Position numbers and translations under genes: made by a program. Of a stretch of DNA of 64,000 nucleotides, positions 30,175 to 35,510 are shown in pieces (within the stretch, counting starts at the first letter, position 1; each line of letters begins with the position of its first letter). The notes beneath the pieces were generated by a model. That model was not told the origin of the DNA. It ran no database searches and saw only the letters and a list, made by a program, of their open reading frames with translations. The DNA is from Nostocales cyanobacterium (GTDB taxonomy: Bacteria; Cyanobacteriota; Cyanobacteriia; Cyanobacteriales; Nostocaceae): NCBI GenBank assembly GCA_004292695.1, contig RDXV01000003.1:1-64000 (forward strand), in the 5' to 3' direction.

Positions 30175-31362
30175 CTACACTCTCTCGCTGGGTGTTAATA
30201 AAAGTAGTTGCTGTTTTATTAGTTTTTTGACTCCGTTTAATTCTAATTCAACTTGACTGATAAGATCCGCTATTTTGGCATTACCATTACATTTCTGCAT
30301 AAATTCAAATTCTGCATCTGATAAATTGATGATTTGGTAATCGTAGTTAAATATACATTTGCTGGGAAACCCATCTATACAGGGGTTAAGTTCGGGTGTT
30401 GCTGCTAATAAGCTGTTATCGTCTTTCCAGTCGTGTTTAGTTAATGGGGGACGTGTGAGGAAAAATTCATAATGTGTTACTTCTGGATTCAGTAATTCTA
30501 TCAGTCTGTATTTTTGGCGTTCTGTGAGTTCTCCTGCTCTCTCTATTAACTCTGGTGCTTTACCCAATAGTCTTTCTAAATCCCAAAACCCAGGATTGGA
30601 AAATCCTACAAAGTCTAATTCTGAAGCGTCTATTAATTCAAACAGTGTATCAATATTGTAGTCTGTTTCCTGGGGATGTACGTACATATCCGCAAAACAT
30701 TCATCCCTTTGGTTTTCCATTGCCCATCTTTCTTTTTCCCTCTTGACAAGTCGGTTATTTTCTGGTAATGAAGCAAATATTTTTCTACCGACTTGTACAC
30801 CATCCCGATAGTCACCGCGTTTATCACCTTGGAGAAGGGCGATCGCCTTTTGCATTAGTTGTATTTCCCATCTTCCCAATTCTCCATACACAAAAATGTG
30901 CATTAACCCACCAGGAGCGAGTTTTTTCGCTAATGCTTGAATACCACGAATGGGATCGGGTAGATGATGAAGCACACCAACACAATTAATTAAATCAAAT
31001 TGTCCTGGTATTTGTTCCACATCGTAAATACTCAGGTGATGAAATTCTACACGGTCAGCGCCGGAACTTTGACAGCGTTTTTTGGCTACTTCTAATGTAC
31101 CAGCACTTAAATCAATTCCCACTACCTGCGCTTGGGGGTTGAGATGTACTAAATATTCTGTTCCGACTCCTGAACCACAACCAGCGTCTAAGATGCGGAT
31201 ATCTTGTTTTGGTGGTTTTCTACCTGTGCAGAAGTTGTAAGCAGCTAACCAATTCCAACGCCAATTATATCCTGGTGGTGGTTCATCCAGGATGGGTTCG
31301 GGGGGGAAAGGGTAGGTATCGTAGAGTTTCGCAACAGCAGCACTTACTTGGGAGTCGGACAT
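30175..31362 (-). CDS. Class I SAM-dependent methyltransferase
   Basis: 395 residues. The SAM site is RILDAGCGSGVGTEYL with the acidic VVGIDLSAGTLEVAKK and the motif-IV region FDLINCVGVLHHL. The N-terminus (KLYDTYPFPPEPI) is typical of a cyanobacterial group. The C-terminal 100 residues form a separate, possibly winged-helix segment (LSDAEFEFMQKCNGNAKIADL). Substrate unknown. Transcribed away from the TA pair, towards the atp operon. Confidence 0.88.
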   Translation of the reverse strand: MSDSQVSAAVAKLYDTYPFPPEPILDEPPPGYNWRWNWLAAYNFCTGRKPPKQDIRILDAGCGSGVGTEYLVHLNPQAQVVGIDLSAGTLEVAKKRCQSSGADRVEFHHLSIYDVEQIPGQFDLINCVGVLHHLPDPIRGIQALAKKLAPGGLMHIFVYGELGRWEIQLMQKAIALLQGDKRGDYRDGVQVGRKIFASLPENNRLVKREKERWAMENQRDECFADMYVHPQETDYNIDTLFELIDASELDFVGFSNPGFWDLERLLGKAPELIERAGELTERQKYRLIELLNPEVTHYEFFLTRPPLTKHDWKDDNSLLAATPELNPCIDGFPSKCIFNYDYQIINLSDAEFEFMQKCNGNAKIADLISQVELELNGVKKLIKQQLLLLTPSERV

Positions 31363-31431: not shown

Positions 31432-31794
31432 TTATTCGTTTTGATTTGATTCAGCTAAAATGTTTTTAATTTCCTGTGGAGTGATATCTTCTTGATCTGA
31501 TTTAGAGTAAATGGTTAATAGAAGTACATTGGTTGGTGATTCAACTTGATAAATGATGCGATAACCAGCACTTTTGCCTTTTTGAATGTTGCTATTTTTG
31601 ACTCTGACTTTAAAAACAATATAATTTTCACCCAGTCTAGATATTCTATCACCTAGAAAATTACCGACTTTAATTTGCTCAATTATTGCTTGAGTATCAG
31701 AACGAATATTCCGGTATTTCTTAGCAAGATAACGCAAGTTATTTTGGTATTCAGGTGTTAATTCTATTTCTATTATTGGCAGTTCATTCGACAT
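31432..31794 (-). CDS. RelE/ParE-type toxin
   Basis: 120 residues. ITELTPEYQNNLRYLAKKY-like N-terminal helices (EIELTPEYQNNLRYLAK) and the strand-rich C-terminal YRIIYQVESPTNVLLLTIYSKS are the RelE-superfamily pattern, with Arg in the GYRIIYQV strand. The start overlaps the antitoxin end by 11 bases. Expected to be an mRNA interferase. Confidence 0.8.
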   Translation of the reverse strand: MSNELPIIEIELTPEYQNNLRYLAKKYRNIRSDTQAIIEQIKVGNFLGDRISRLGENYIVFKVRVKNSNIQKGKSAGYRIIYQVESPTNVLLLTIYSKSDQEDITPQEIKNILAESNQNE

Positions 31795-32038
31795 CTATTC
31801 CCTCCCACATTTGAGATAGGGGAATACGTTTTCCAGCTTTTGCTTCTTGTACTGCTCTCTTTAAACTAGCTTTGATTTCTTCAATAGGAGTATCATCATT
31901 GTCGGTTTCTAATTCATCTGTAGGTTCAGTAAAGAGAATTATTACTCTGACTTTTCCGGGTATTTCTACATTCAGGGGTTTGTCTAAAAATAATTCTCCT
32001 TTTTCATCAATGTTACCTGTGACTTCTATTGCTTTCAT
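31784..32038 (-). CDS. Antitoxin of a RelE-type pair
   Basis: 84 residues from ATG at 32038, which has GAGGA seven to eight bases upstream; an in-frame TTG 16 codons earlier is not favoured. N-terminal strand MKAIEVTGNIDEKGELFLDKP and a C-terminal helix (EIKASLKRAVQEAKAGKRIP) ending LSQMWEGID, the usual toxin-embracing tail. Overlaps the toxin gene, a classical TA arrangement. Confidence 0.78.
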   Translation of the reverse strand: MKAIEVTGNIDEKGELFLDKPLNVEIPGKVRVIILFTEPTDELETDNDDTPIEEIKASLKRAVQEAKAGKRIPLSQMWEGIDVE

Positions 32039-32134
32039 TTGTTTATCCTCATGATTATTTATATTTAGTTTAACGGTTGTTGGCAATTTTGAGTCTCATG
32101 ACTTAATTTTTCGATAAAAACCAATATTTATAAC

Positions 32135-32226
32135 AGAACTTACGCAAAACAGAACAAAATGATTGGTATTTCGTAAGTTACCACTACGCAATCATAAGGG
32201 TTTTGAAAACCTCGTGCGTAAGTCCT
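32135..32226. mobile_element. MITE-like element with AGRACTTACGCA termini
   Basis: About 90 bases bounded by AGAACTTACGCAAAAC and, inverted, AGGACTTACGCACGAG; the 9-bp core ACTTACGCA is a perfect inverted repeat. Too short to code. These termini resemble those of small non-autonomous transposons in Nostocales. It sits in the 439-base gene-free region between the TA pair and the pentapeptide gene; the rest of that region shows nothing recognisable. Confidence 0.65.
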
Positions 32227-32477
32227 ACATAAGTTATTTGCATGGAATTATTGTAAAACAAAAATATATTTTTACGGGTAACATTGTGTTTACTTGACTA
32301 AGTAACTTGTTTAGTAATATACTGTCATGGGTGGGGTAAATATGTAAATAAAGGCGATCTCTCTCAAAAGATCAATATATAGTTACGTTTATCAAGACAC
32401 TGCAAAAATCAGTGTTTTGGTTATTGGTGTATTCAATCATTTTCTTAGATTAAAAATTCTATTTTGGACTTTAAATC

Positions 32478-33374
32478 ATGGATGAACAAGCACTCAAACA
32501 AGCATTGATTAATCTTCCTGATGATGCACTGGAAGTTATCGTATCTAAAGATCCGGCAATTCTGAAAACATTAACTGTGGCAGAATTAAAGAAAATTGCT
32601 AAAAATCGTGGTATTGTGGGTTTTAGTAAGAAAAGTAAAGATGCTTTAGTTGAATTATTAAGTAGTGATTTTGATCCCAAAGCTGAGGAAATATTAAAAC
32701 TCTATGCAAGTGGAATAAGAGATTTTAGTCCTAACATCCATGAAGATGAAATTCACTGGGATGGAATTAATTTATCAGGAGCTAATCTTAGTGAATCTGA
32801 ATTACATATTTTCATAACTAACGCCAACTTACGTAAGATAAATTTGAGTAAGTGTGATTTGAGGGATACTGATTTTACAAATAGCGATCTTTCTCATGCA
32901 AATTTAGAATCTGCTAATTTAGAGTCTGCTGACTTGCGGGGTGCAAACTTAACGGGTGCAAATTTGAAAAATGCCAATTTAGAATGGAGTAATTTAGAAT
33001 CTGCTAATTTGAAAGGTGCAGATTTAAGAGGTGTGAAACTAGAAGATGTAAATTATGATAGTTCTACTCAATGGCCTGACGATTTTGATCCAGATTTTTC
33101 TATTGGTGTTTGGTTAGATGATGAGACTTTTGTAAGATGTAATCAAATCAGAACCATAGAAATCGCTAGAAGTTGGGATTCATTTGCTAATGCTTTGGTT
33201 CAAATGGGTTATAAAAAGAAAATTTCTAAAATTTTAGATAACGGAGAAGACGATTATTATTTATTGAGTGATTTACCAATTGATTTTGATGAGTTAGTTG
33301 GGATGGACTGGGATTATTTGGAAATCAGAAGTTCTGTGTTAATAGGAAGTTTAGTTTTAGAAGAGATATTATGA
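32478..33374 (+). CDS. Pentapeptide-repeat protein with N-terminal Rho-N/SAP-like domain
   Basis: 298 residues. Residues 30-65 (LTVAELKKIAKNRGIVGFSK) resemble the Rho N-terminal/SAP-type helix-extended-loop-helix fold that binds nucleic acid. Residues about 95-190 are about 19 pentapeptide repeats of A(N/D)L-type (SGANLSESEL, ESANLESADLRGANLTGANL). The C-terminal 110 residues are acidic and unrecognised. Its TGA overlaps the ATG of a short downstream open frame. Combination of a DNA/RNA-binding-like head and a pentapeptide helix is unusual; function unknown. Confidence 0.8.
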   Translation: MDEQALKQALINLPDDALEVIVSKDPAILKTLTVAELKKIAKNRGIVGFSKKSKDALVELLSSDFDPKAEEILKLYASGIRDFSPNIHEDEIHWDGINLSGANLSESELHIFITNANLRKINLSKCDLRDTDFTNSDLSHANLESANLESADLRGANLTGANLKNANLEWSNLESANLKGADLRGVKLEDVNYDSSTQWPDDFDPDFSIGVWLDDETFVRCNQIRTIEIARSWDSFANALVQMGYKKKISKILDNGEDDYYLLSDLPIDFDELVGMDWDYLEIRSSVLIGSLVLEEIL

Positions 33375-33436
33375 ATGAATTAGAAGACGCTATTGATGAT
33401 GGAAAAGTTAGACTTTTAATCTTTTTGTATACTTGA
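33371..33436 (+). pseudogene. Short truncated open frame coupled to the pentapeptide gene
   Basis: ATGA overlap with the preceding stop, then 21 codons (MNELEDAIDDGKVRLLIF...). The tight coupling suggests a real second gene that has been cut off; the MITE at 33473 starts 37 bases after its stop. Probably the remnant of a partner gene. Confidence 0.45.
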
Positions 33437-33472
33437 TTAATTTGGTTGGTAATTGGGAGTTGTTAGTTGTGG

Positions 33473-33659
33473 TTGTCTGAATCAGGATAACCAGGATTTG
33501 AAGATTTACAGGATTGCAGTTTATAGATTTTCTGTAAATATTTAATGATGATAAATTTTGATGCAGATCAAAAATATATTTCCTATCATTCAAAGAAAAC
33601 TATAAATAATCAAAAACATCCTGTAAATCCTTTAATCCTGGACATCCTGATTCAGACAA
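33473..33659. mobile_element. 187-bp MITE, copy A
   Basis: Starts TTGTCTGAATCAGGATAACC and ends GGACATCCTGATTCAGACAA, which are inverted copies of each other with a few mismatches. The middle is AT-rich, without coding potential. Nearly identical, base for base in length, to copy B at 34576, in the same orientation. Partial copies occur at 19575, 21352, 38472, 38860 and 47930. Confidence 0.88.
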
Positions 33660-33731
33660 TTTAATTATTCCTTGTTTTCCTTTATAATCAAAATATTAAA
33701 CATTATAAATAACTAAACAGGAGTAAAAAAA

Positions 33732-34130
33732 ATTATTAATCATCAACCTCAACTCATCCCAGGAGAAGGAACTGTAGGTACTTATGGAGACTTACTAAAA
33801 AAAGGACGCAGAGGAGATAACCTCACACCTCATCATATACCTGCGGATGCTTTTATGAAAGCGAAAGTTACAGGTTATACAACAGATCAAGGATTTGCTA
33901 TCATGATGGAACATTTATCACCAGGAAAAGGAGGCCGTCACCGCTTAACTGTTTCTTATGGTAAACGTCCTAATTTAAACTTATCGCCTAGAATAGTATT
34001 AGCACAAGAAATATCTGATGTTCGTTCTATTTATCTTTCTCAAGGTTTGTATAATAAAAAAATCAGGGAAAGTTTGCAAGCATTAATCAAACTCAATAAA
34101 GTAACTTGGCAATCTATTTTTATTAAATGA
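33732..34130 (+). CDS. Polymorphic-toxin C-terminal domain (orphan toxin tip), non-canonical or missing start
   Basis: The open frame extends well upstream of the first ATG (33855). From ATT at 33732 it encodes 132 residues including LIPGEGTVGTYGDLL, GRRGDNLTPHHIPADAFM and HLSPGKGGRHRLTVSYG. The His-His-Ile-Pro and Gly-Arg-His segments look like nuclease-type toxin tips at the C-termini of polymorphic toxins. AGGAG (33719-33723) lies eight bases before the ATT, and a TATAAT stands at 33683. Either it starts at ATT and is expressed alone, or it is the broken C-terminus of a larger toxin. The immunity gene follows after ten bases. Exact family not recognised. Confidence 0.6.
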   Translation: MINHQPQLIPGEGTVGTYGDLLKKGRRGDNLTPHHIPADAFMKAKVTGYTTDQGFAIMMEHLSPGKGGRHRLTVSYGKRPNLNLSPRIVLAQEISDVRSIYLSQGLYNKKIRESLQALIKLNKVTWQSIFIK

Positions 34131-34140
34131 GGTAAAAGCT

Positions 34141-34575
34141 ATGAATCACAATAATTTACTAGAAATATTAAAAAATAACCGCTTGATGCAAACAGAAGCA
34201 CAAATTACAAATTTTGAAAATGCTTTAACTGCAATAGCTGAAAATCCTGATGAAAATGATTTATCTGCCTATCATCTGATTTTAGATGATCAATGTCAAC
34301 AACCAGAAGTGATGTTTAGCTTAATTCATTTTCTGGAATCTTTTGATATGGAAAAACAAATTACAGCATTTATTAAAGTTGTTCCCCAATTAATGATCAC
34401 AGCACCTGAATGGACAAGAATTATTCACAACCGGATTTTAAATGATGAATCAGCTTGTCAAGTTTATCAAAACCTATTGCATTCAGCTAATTTAAACACT
34501 CCTCATTTTCTCTATCATCTTTTAGAGGAAAGTATTATGAATAAATTGCAAATGAAAGAAAGTGTATTAATGTGA
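34141..34575 (+). CDS. Imm30-like immunity protein
   Basis: 144 residues, all helical in appearance: LLEILKNNRLMQTEAQITNFENAL, then QPEVMFSLIHFLESFDMEKQ and LMITAPEWTRIIHNRILNDES, a pattern I associate with the immunity 30 family of polymorphic toxin systems. GAGG precedes the ATG by nine bases. It follows the toxin-tip frame, consistent with neutralising it. Copy B of the MITE starts one base after the stop. Confidence 0.7.
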   Translation: MNHNNLLEILKNNRLMQTEAQITNFENALTAIAENPDENDLSAYHLILDDQCQQPEVMFSLIHFLESFDMEKQITAFIKVVPQLMITAPEWTRIIHNRILNDESACQVYQNLLHSANLNTPHFLYHLLEESIMNKLQMKESVLM

Positions 34576-34762
34576 TTGTCTGAATCAGGATAACCAGGAT
34601 TTGAGGATGTACAGGATTGTTATTGATAGATTGTCTGTAAATATTTAAGAATTATAAATTTTGATTCAGATAAAAAATATATTTCCTATCATTCAAAGAC
34701 AACGATAAATGATCAAAAACATCCTGTAAATCCTGTAATCCTGGACATCCTGATTCAGACAA
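34576..34762. mobile_element. 187-bp MITE, copy B
   Basis: Same termini, length and orientation as copy A (33473). Its right end lies five bases before the cobK stop codon; its left end touches the Imm30-like stop. The two copies bracket exactly the toxin/immunity cassette. Confidence 0.9.
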
Positions 34763-34766
34763 TTTC

Positions 34767-35510
34767 CTAATTTCCAATTCTTTCTAACAACCAACTCACC
34801 GCACCTTCAACATCTGCGACTTCTTCACCCATTGGTACAGGTGGACGTTTAATCATGACAACCTTTATTCCTAATTCCCGTGCAGCAATAATCTTAGCAT
34901 AAGTAGCATTACCACCGCTATTTTTACTCACAATTGTATCTATAGAATATTGAATTAAAATCTCTTTTTCCTGTTCTAAATTAAAAGGACCTTTATCATA
35001 TAAAATCAAACCATTGGGAATTAAAGAACCTGGTTTTGGTGGATCAATCATCCGCATTAAAAACCAAATATTTTGTAAATGTGCAAAAGCTGAAATTTCC
35101 TGTCTACCGATAGTTAAAAAAACTCTTTGAGCGTGATTTTCTAACACCAAAGCTGCATTGATATGATCATCTACCTCTATCCAATCATCACTAGGTAATT
35201 TTTCCCAAGGAGGACGATTTAATAATAACCGAGAAATACCTACTTCCTGTGCTGCTTGTGCTGCATTTTGGGAAATTTGAGCAGCAAAGGGGTGAGTGGC
35301 ATCAATTAACACATCTATTTGGTTTTCCCGTAAGTAATTAACTAAACCAGACACACCCCCAAAACCGCCAACACGTACATTTCCTGTGGGTGTAATAGGT
35401 TCACGGGTAGCACCGGCTAAAGATGCGATCGCCTCGATTCCTGTAATATTAGCTACCCTAGAGGCTAATTCTCGCGCATCACCAGTACCACCCAAAATTA
35501 AAATCCGCAT
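34767..35510 (-). CDS. cobK: Precorrin-6A / cobalt-precorrin-6A reductase
   Basis: 247 residues. N-terminal nucleotide-binding ILILGGTGDARELA, DATHPFAAQIS, FLTIGRQEISAF and SKNSGGNATYAKI are the CobK/CbiJ signatures. NAD(P)H-dependent reduction of the corrin macrocycle in cobalamin synthesis. The DUF1636 gene lies upstream on the same strand. Confidence 0.92.
   Translation of the reverse strand: MRILILGGTGDARELASRVANITGIEAIASLAGATREPITPTGNVRVGGFGGVSGLVNYLRENQIDVLIDATHPFAAQISQNAAQAAQEVGISRLLLNRPPWEKLPSDDWIEVDDHINAALVLENHAQRVFLTIGRQEISAFAHLQNIWFLMRMIDPPKPGSLIPNGLILYDKGPFNLEQEKEILIQYSIDTIVSKNSGGNATYAKIIAARELGIKVVMIKRPPVPMGEEVADVEGAVSWLLERIGN

What the first reader, a model, noticed from the sequence alone, without database searches (positions are those of the whole stretch)
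33683..33855. Toxin frame with promoter and Shine-Dalgarno but only ATT where the start codon should be
Seen: TATAAT at 33683, AGGAG at 33719, then ATT at 33732 in frame; the first ATG is 41 codons further on and would remove conserved-looking residues. The sequence upstream is closed by a TAA. Inference: either translation begins at ATT, which could keep toxin level very low, or the gene is an N-terminally truncated tip from a polymorphic toxin. Both fit a stored toxin cassette.
Basis: partly seen in the sequence, partly recalled or inferred. Interest (0 to 1): 0.6.

Follow-up and report, generated by a model that had tools for sequence, protein, structure and literature searches.

The report
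Toxin gene starting at weak AUU codon
A small cyanobacterial toxin gene, paired with its immunity gene, seems to start translation at the inefficient codon ATT instead of ATG, and most relatives across cyanobacteria keep such weak start codons (ATT, ATC, ATA, ACG) behind a strong ribosome-binding site, which would throttle the toxin and which annotation software misses.

Summary
The frame 33732-34130 encodes a 132-residue domain that matches the C-terminal tip of LXG and HINT polymorphic toxins and lies directly upstream of an Imm30 immunity gene (34141-34575). In cyanobacteria the full-length matches are short free-standing genes next to Imm30, so this is not a stored tip of a local polymorphic toxin.

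The missing ATG is not damage. Of 54 non-duplicate homologues, 42 have ATT, ATC, ATA or ACG, nearly all behind a strong Shine-Dalgarno; 12 start at ATG or GTG, mostly with little or no Shine-Dalgarno. Codons before the first ATG (Met42) are under purifying selection (dN/dS 0.04-0.17) and hold conserved D29, H34 and H35. Met42 is internal in the Bacillus LXG relative. RefSeq truncates one homologue at exactly that methionine.

Best explanation: initiation at AUU (33732, or 33735) limits toxin synthesis relative to the AUG-initiated immunity protein. Strong Shine-Dalgarno plus near-cognate start is known (infC, pcnB; cvfC1 and ccpN in S. aureus), and non-AUG starts are known in type I toxins. 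I found no report of it in a polymorphic-toxin-derived toxin/immunity family. Translation itself is inferred; no expression data were available.

The parts
33683..33688 (+). TATAAT, candidate -10 element, 43 nt before the start
   Evidence: Exact hexamer; also in L002, L004, L014-L016, L040, L041, L044, L045. Weak on its own in AT-rich DNA.
33719..33723 (+). Shine-Dalgarno AGGAG
   Evidence: Predicted anti-SD pairing -6.9 kcal/mol; conserved in homologues while surrounding leader diverges
33732..33734 (+). Inferred start codon ATT (near-cognate), 8 nt after AGGAG; the next codon ATT 33735-33737 (11 nt) is the alternative
   Evidence: Homologues have ATT/ATC/ATA/ACG/GTG/ATG at the corresponding place
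33732..34130 (+). Free-standing toxin gene (132 aa), polymorphic-toxin tip domain, probably an HH nuclease
   Evidence: 42% identity to the C-terminal domain of a B. licheniformis LXG toxin; conserved D29, H34, H35, E60, H70, R71
33855..33857 (+). First in-frame ATG (Met42); internal, not the start
   Evidence: dN/dS 0.04-0.17 for codons 13-41; aligned Met is internal in the LXG protein
34141..34575 (+). Imm30 immunity gene, ATG start, GAGGT Shine-Dalgarno at 34129-34133
   Evidence: PF15565 E=7e-34; present beside the toxin in nearly all loci

Best explanation
33732-34575 is a bicistronic toxin/immunity module: a free-standing, nuclease-like toxin domain of polymorphic-toxin ancestry followed by its Imm30 immunity gene. 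Ribosomes recruited by a strong Shine-Dalgarno (AGGAG) initiate the toxin at the near-cognate codon AUU (33732, or the adjacent AUU at 33735). AUU pairs poorly with initiator tRNA and is expected to be discriminated against by IF3, so little toxin is made per transcript. The immunity gene, second in the operon, starts at AUG, so immunity can exceed toxin although the toxin gene comes first. Shown: the layout; conservation of near-cognate start plus Shine-Dalgarno across cyanobacteria; purifying selection on codons upstream of the first ATG; Imm30 pairing. Inferred: actual initiation at AUU, low yield, nuclease activity, neutralisation by Imm30.
For: 42 of 54 non-duplicate homologues have ATT/ATC/ATA/ACG at the start place, 40 of these 42 with strong Shine-Dalgarno pairing. 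In the window's clade an in-frame stop often directly precedes the ATT. dN/dS is 0.04-0.17 for codons 13-41 and 0.17-0.43 for the nine codons before them. Invariant or near-invariant D29, H34 and H35 lie before Met42, and the LXG relative aligns from residue 8. Imm30 starts at ATG in nearly all loci. Toxin is lost before Imm30: 6 loci toxin broken/Imm30 intact, 3 both broken, no clear case of the reverse. The leader is predicted unstructured, so the Shine-Dalgarno is accessible. Precedent: AUU/AUA starts with extended Shine-Dalgarno give about 10% of AUG reporter output in S. aureus (PMC13009471).
Against: No expression data. The exact AUU is ambiguous (L014 and L009/L069 keep only the second, L021 and L070 only the first). 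Some distant weak-start loci (L053, L057, L075-L077, L021, L070) also hold an in-frame GTG or TTG, without a Shine-Dalgarno at working distance in most cases, that could be their start. The contrast in Shine-Dalgarno strength between weak and canonical starts rests on 2-3 independent changes and weak starts were partly located by their Shine-Dalgarno. L019 has a stop in the N-terminal tail with an otherwise intact frame.
Confidence: 0.8

Rival explanations
1. Silent orphan tip: the cassette is untranslated stock for recombination into a full-length polymorphic toxin and never needed a start codon.
For: The domain is a tip of LXG and HINT polymorphic toxins elsewhere; standalone cassettes are known (PMC3482391).
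Against: No full-length parent in the cyanobacterial genomes searched; Shine-Dalgarno and near-cognate codon are conserved; purifying selection extends through the N-terminal part; the same locus is kept in several genera.
Confidence: 0.08
2. Translation starts at the first ATG, 33855 (Met42), giving a 91-residue protein, as RefSeq annotates in Gloeothece.
For: RefSeq places the CDS start of the Gloeothece homologue there; Met42 is invariant.
Against: No Shine-Dalgarno was sought by the annotator's rule beyond ATG/GTG/TTG; dN/dS before Met42 is 0.04-0.17; D29, H34, H35 would be lost; the Met is internal in the LXG toxin and in homologues that have upstream ATG or GTG starts.
Confidence: 0.04
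3. Recent pseudogene that lost its ATG, or an assembly error.
For: Some relatives are clearly broken (L003, L016, L019, L020).
Against: Intact homologues from many assemblies have ATT or another near-cognate at this place, and no ATG form exists in the window's clade; the window's toxin and Imm30 frames are intact.
Confidence: 0.03
4. The toxin is made by coupling or frameshifting from an upstream ORF rather than by initiation at ATT.
For: Some homologues have short upstream ORFs that overlap the start.
Against: None in the window, and none conserved: positions, frames and start codons of those ORFs differ between loci; in-frame stops directly precede the ATT in several.
Confidence: 0.03

Closest known systems
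Conserved non-canonical starts with extended Shine-Dalgarno: S. aureus cvfC1 (AUU), ccpN and infC (AUA) (PMC13009471); E. coli infC and pcnB (AUU; pcnB cited there, infC from general knowledge)
   Same: Strong Shine-Dalgarno followed by a conserved near-cognate start that lowers initiation.
   Different: Here the gene is a toxin of a toxin/immunity pair in cyanobacteria, and the codon varies between ATT, ATC, ATA, ACG, GTG and ATG over the family. No expression data yet.
Type I toxins with non-AUG start codons (reviewed in PMC8167048)
   Same: A poor start codon as a way to limit toxin synthesis.
   Different: Type I pairs use an antisense RNA antitoxin; here the partner is a protein, Imm30, and the toxin is a polymorphic-toxin domain.
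Polymorphic toxin tip plus Imm30: B. licheniformis LXG toxin, NZ_CP021678.1
   Same: Homologous toxin domain (42% identity) followed by Imm30 genes.
   Different: There it is the C-terminal part of a 554-residue secreted effector with LXG and pre-toxin domains; here it stands alone without a delivery part.
Tox-SHH (PF15652), the toxin family reported with Imm30 in PMC3482391
   Same: HH motif and Imm30 partner.
   Different: The motif here is PHH rather than [SG]HH, and the Tox-SHH model matches neither this protein nor anything in 243 genomes of the order.

Membership tests
Polymorphic toxin tip / immunity pair | Toxin domain shared with C-terminal tips of multidomain secreted toxins | tested here: met
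   LXG/PT-TG and PT-HINT proteins end in this domain
Polymorphic toxin tip / immunity pair | Immunity gene directly downstream | tested here: met
   Imm30 in nearly all loci
Polymorphic toxin tip / immunity pair | N-terminal trafficking or delivery domain | tested here: not met
   Frame opens 7 residues before the domain; full-length cyanobacterial matches are short free-standing frames. So it is not a polymorphic toxin proper, only its tip domain.
Near-cognate (AUU-type) start with strong Shine-Dalgarno | No canonical start in the leader, Shine-Dalgarno at 5-11 nt, conserved | tested here: met
Near-cognate (AUU-type) start with strong Shine-Dalgarno | Initiation at that codon shown by profiling, proteomics or reporter | not testable with these tools
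   No expression data on hand
Tox-SHH (PF15652) | Match to the Pfam model | tested here: not met
   No match in hmmscan of the window protein and 42 homologues, nor in 243 genomes
HNH/EndoVII-like nuclease fold | Structural match | tested here: inconclusive
   AlphaFold2 model too poor (mean pLDDT 42); no PDB sequence relative

The most novel reading that the evidence does not exclude
A whole toxin family in cyanobacteria is under selection to keep an inefficient start: lineages switch between strong Shine-Dalgarno plus AUU/AUC/AUA/ACG and AUG/GUG with little or no Shine-Dalgarno, so that toxin output stays in a narrow low range, possibly making the toxin responsive to IF3 or ribosome state.
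Probability: 0.4. Interest if true: 0.8.

Novelty: new variant of a known kind. Interest (0 to 1): 0.64.

Why it matters
It is a comparative case, over many cyanobacterial families, of a gene family that keeps AUU-type start codons, tied to a clear need (less toxin than immunity protein although the toxin gene is first). It shows a blind spot: start models limited to ATG/GTG/TTG cut off the likely active-site residues, so such toxins are hidden or truncated in databases. It also offers a natural series of start codon and Shine-Dalgarno combinations for testing initiation fidelity in cyanobacteria.

Tried and rejected
Pfam, NCBIfam, PHROGs and PDB gave no family for the toxin; a weak PADLOC hit (E 0.0024 to a type II methyltransferase) looks spurious. 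Viral contigs: no relative. Pseudogene by loss of ATG: rejected, the ATT is conserved. Met42 start: rejected. Flanking 202-nt repeats as boundaries of the cassette: set aside, because their end motif occurs 115 times in the genome and blastn showed no copy in the L006, L008 and L021 stretches. infC as an in-genome AUU control: its frame contains an early ATG, so it says nothing. A statistical test of Shine-Dalgarno/start compensation with independent pairs has too few changes. Selection against ATG: 5 codon changes among weak rows and none to ATG in an intact gene of that clade, too few to be significant.

Full report
OBSERVATION. All stated features are present at the stated places: TATAAT 33683-33688, AGGAG 33719-33723, ATT ATT 33732-33737, in-frame TAA 33714-33716, first in-frame ATG 33855, stop TGA 34128-34130. 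No ATG, GTG or TTG lies between the TAA and 33855 in this frame, and no ORF with a canonical start in the other two frames runs across the start.

WHAT IT IS. The next gene (34141-34575, ATG start, 10 nt after the toxin stop) is an Imm30 immunity protein (PF15565, E=7e-34). The toxin itself has no Pfam or NCBIfam family. tblastn against plasmids found it as the C-terminal domain of a B. licheniformis LXG/PT-TG toxin, followed there by two Imm30 genes, and of a Streptomyces PT-HINT toxin. Window residues 8-132 align to the last 128 residues of the LXG protein at 42% identity. So it is a polymorphic-toxin tip domain. Conserved residues over 42 homologues include D29, H34, H35, Met42, E60, G67, G68, H70, R71 and S75-Y76-G77. 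An HH nuclease is the likeliest activity (inference: HH motif, and Imm30 is reported with the HNH-fold family Tox-SHH in PMC3482391), but the fold was not established (poor model; no Tox-SHH model match).

DISTRIBUTION. Matches occur in 54 of 389 genomes sampled at order level, 31 of 217 of the family and 15 of 388 at class level. The full-length cyanobacterial matches are short free-standing frames of about 130-180 aa with Imm30 next to them. A profile search of 386 genomes at phylum level found no longer toxin. In Sphaerospermopsis, Trichormus, Nostoc and others the pair lies near the same methyltransferase gene (window 30175-31362), which speaks for vertical inheritance in this group.

THE START CODON. 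In the window's clade the sequence reads AGGAGTAAATAA-ATT-ATT-AAT or close variants, often with an in-frame stop directly before the ATT. In other lineages the codon behind the Shine-Dalgarno is ATC, ATT, ATA or ACG. Two sets differ: ATG (L022-L025, L059, L060, and the broken L058) and GTG (L062-L066); with the exception of L058 these have little or no Shine-Dalgarno. On a tree of the core (start region excluded; IQ-TREE, 54 cyanobacterial rows plus the LXG outgroup) the six codons need 9 changes, and weak versus canonical needs 3; among the weak rows alone there are 5 changes of codon. Predicted pairing with the anti-Shine-Dalgarno averages -7.3 kcal/mol for 45 weak-start rows and -1.7 for 12 canonical rows. 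In the non-duplicate set 40 of 42 weak starts have pairing of -5 kcal/mol or better, and 1 of 12 canonical starts does. This contrast rests on only 2-3 independent changes, and the weak starts were partly located by their Shine-Dalgarno, so it is suggestive and no proof of compensation. A shuffle control that does not preselect the codon gives 16 of 21 representatives with Shine-Dalgarno plus in-frame near-cognate against 1.1 expected; these sequences are related, so the count is not a probability.

IS THE PART BEFORE MET42 TRANSLATED? Pairwise Nei-Gojobori counts over four groups give dN/dS 0.04-0.17 for codons 13-41 and 0.17-0.43 for the nine codons before them (the script stopped inside the fourth group, so the ATG group was not computed). 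That is the signature of a translated protein. In the window no canonical start is available, so initiation must use a near-cognate codon, and the only ones with a Shine-Dalgarno at working distance are the ATT pair. ATT 33732 has 8 nt spacing and ATT 33735 has 11; both remain possible, because L014 and L009/L069 keep only the second and L021 and L070 only the first. RefSeq annotates the Gloeothece plasmid homologue from the Met42 equivalent, which cuts off D29, H34 and H35. In some distant loci an in-frame GTG or TTG is also present, so the near-cognate start is less certain there.

HOW IT PROBABLY WORKS. The toxin gene is first and immunity second in the operon. A near-cognate start lowers toxin synthesis while Imm30 has an AUG start (ATG at the aligned place in nearly all loci). 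In decayed loci the toxin is broken with Imm30 intact in 6, both are broken in 3, and there is no clear case of an intact toxin without Imm30 (the two candidates, L047 and L061, have altered toxin C-termini). This is what a toxin/immunity pair predicts. Near-cognate starts with extended Shine-Dalgarno gave roughly 10% of AUG reporter output in S. aureus (PMC13009471). The window's leader is predicted unstructured, so the codon rather than RNA structure would be the brake. Expression, toxicity and neutralisation are inferred, not shown. That IF3 discriminates against AUU is established knowledge for E. coli, not tested here.

NOVELTY. Conserved near-cognate starts behind extended Shine-Dalgarno are known in a few genes (infC, pcnB, cvfC1, ccpN; PMC13009471), and non-AUG starts are known for some type I toxins (PMC8167048). 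The literature searches made here turned up no report of this in polymorphic-toxin-derived pairs or in cyanobacteria; the library is incomplete. I rate it a new variant of a known kind.

Noticed in passing
33468-33669 and 34571-34772: Two direct 202-nt copies (90% identical) of an imperfect palindrome flank the toxin/immunity pair; their end motif CATCCTGATTCAGACAA occurs 115 times in the genome with one mismatch allowed. A dispersed repeat family, probably not part of the module.
   Followed up: partly
31432-32086 (- strand): Two small adjacent genes that look like a RelE/ParE-type toxin and its antitoxin, inside a roughly 2-kb stretch (31432-33460) that is absent between the methyltransferase gene and the toxin in L021.
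   Followed up: no
32478-33374: Pentapeptide-repeat protein with an N-terminal SAP/Rho_N-like segment directly upstream of the module.
   Followed up: no
L082 2612-2884 (NC_014502.1 166331-166603): RefSeq CDS of the Gloeothece homologue (WP_041934394.1) begins at the Met42 equivalent, so the public protein lacks about 40 N-terminal residues of the domain.
   Followed up: yes
L003, L016, L019, L020, L050, L058, L064, L078, L079: Toxin copies broken by stops or frame loss, six of nine with Imm30 still intact: the toxin decays more readily than the immunity gene.
   Followed up: yes
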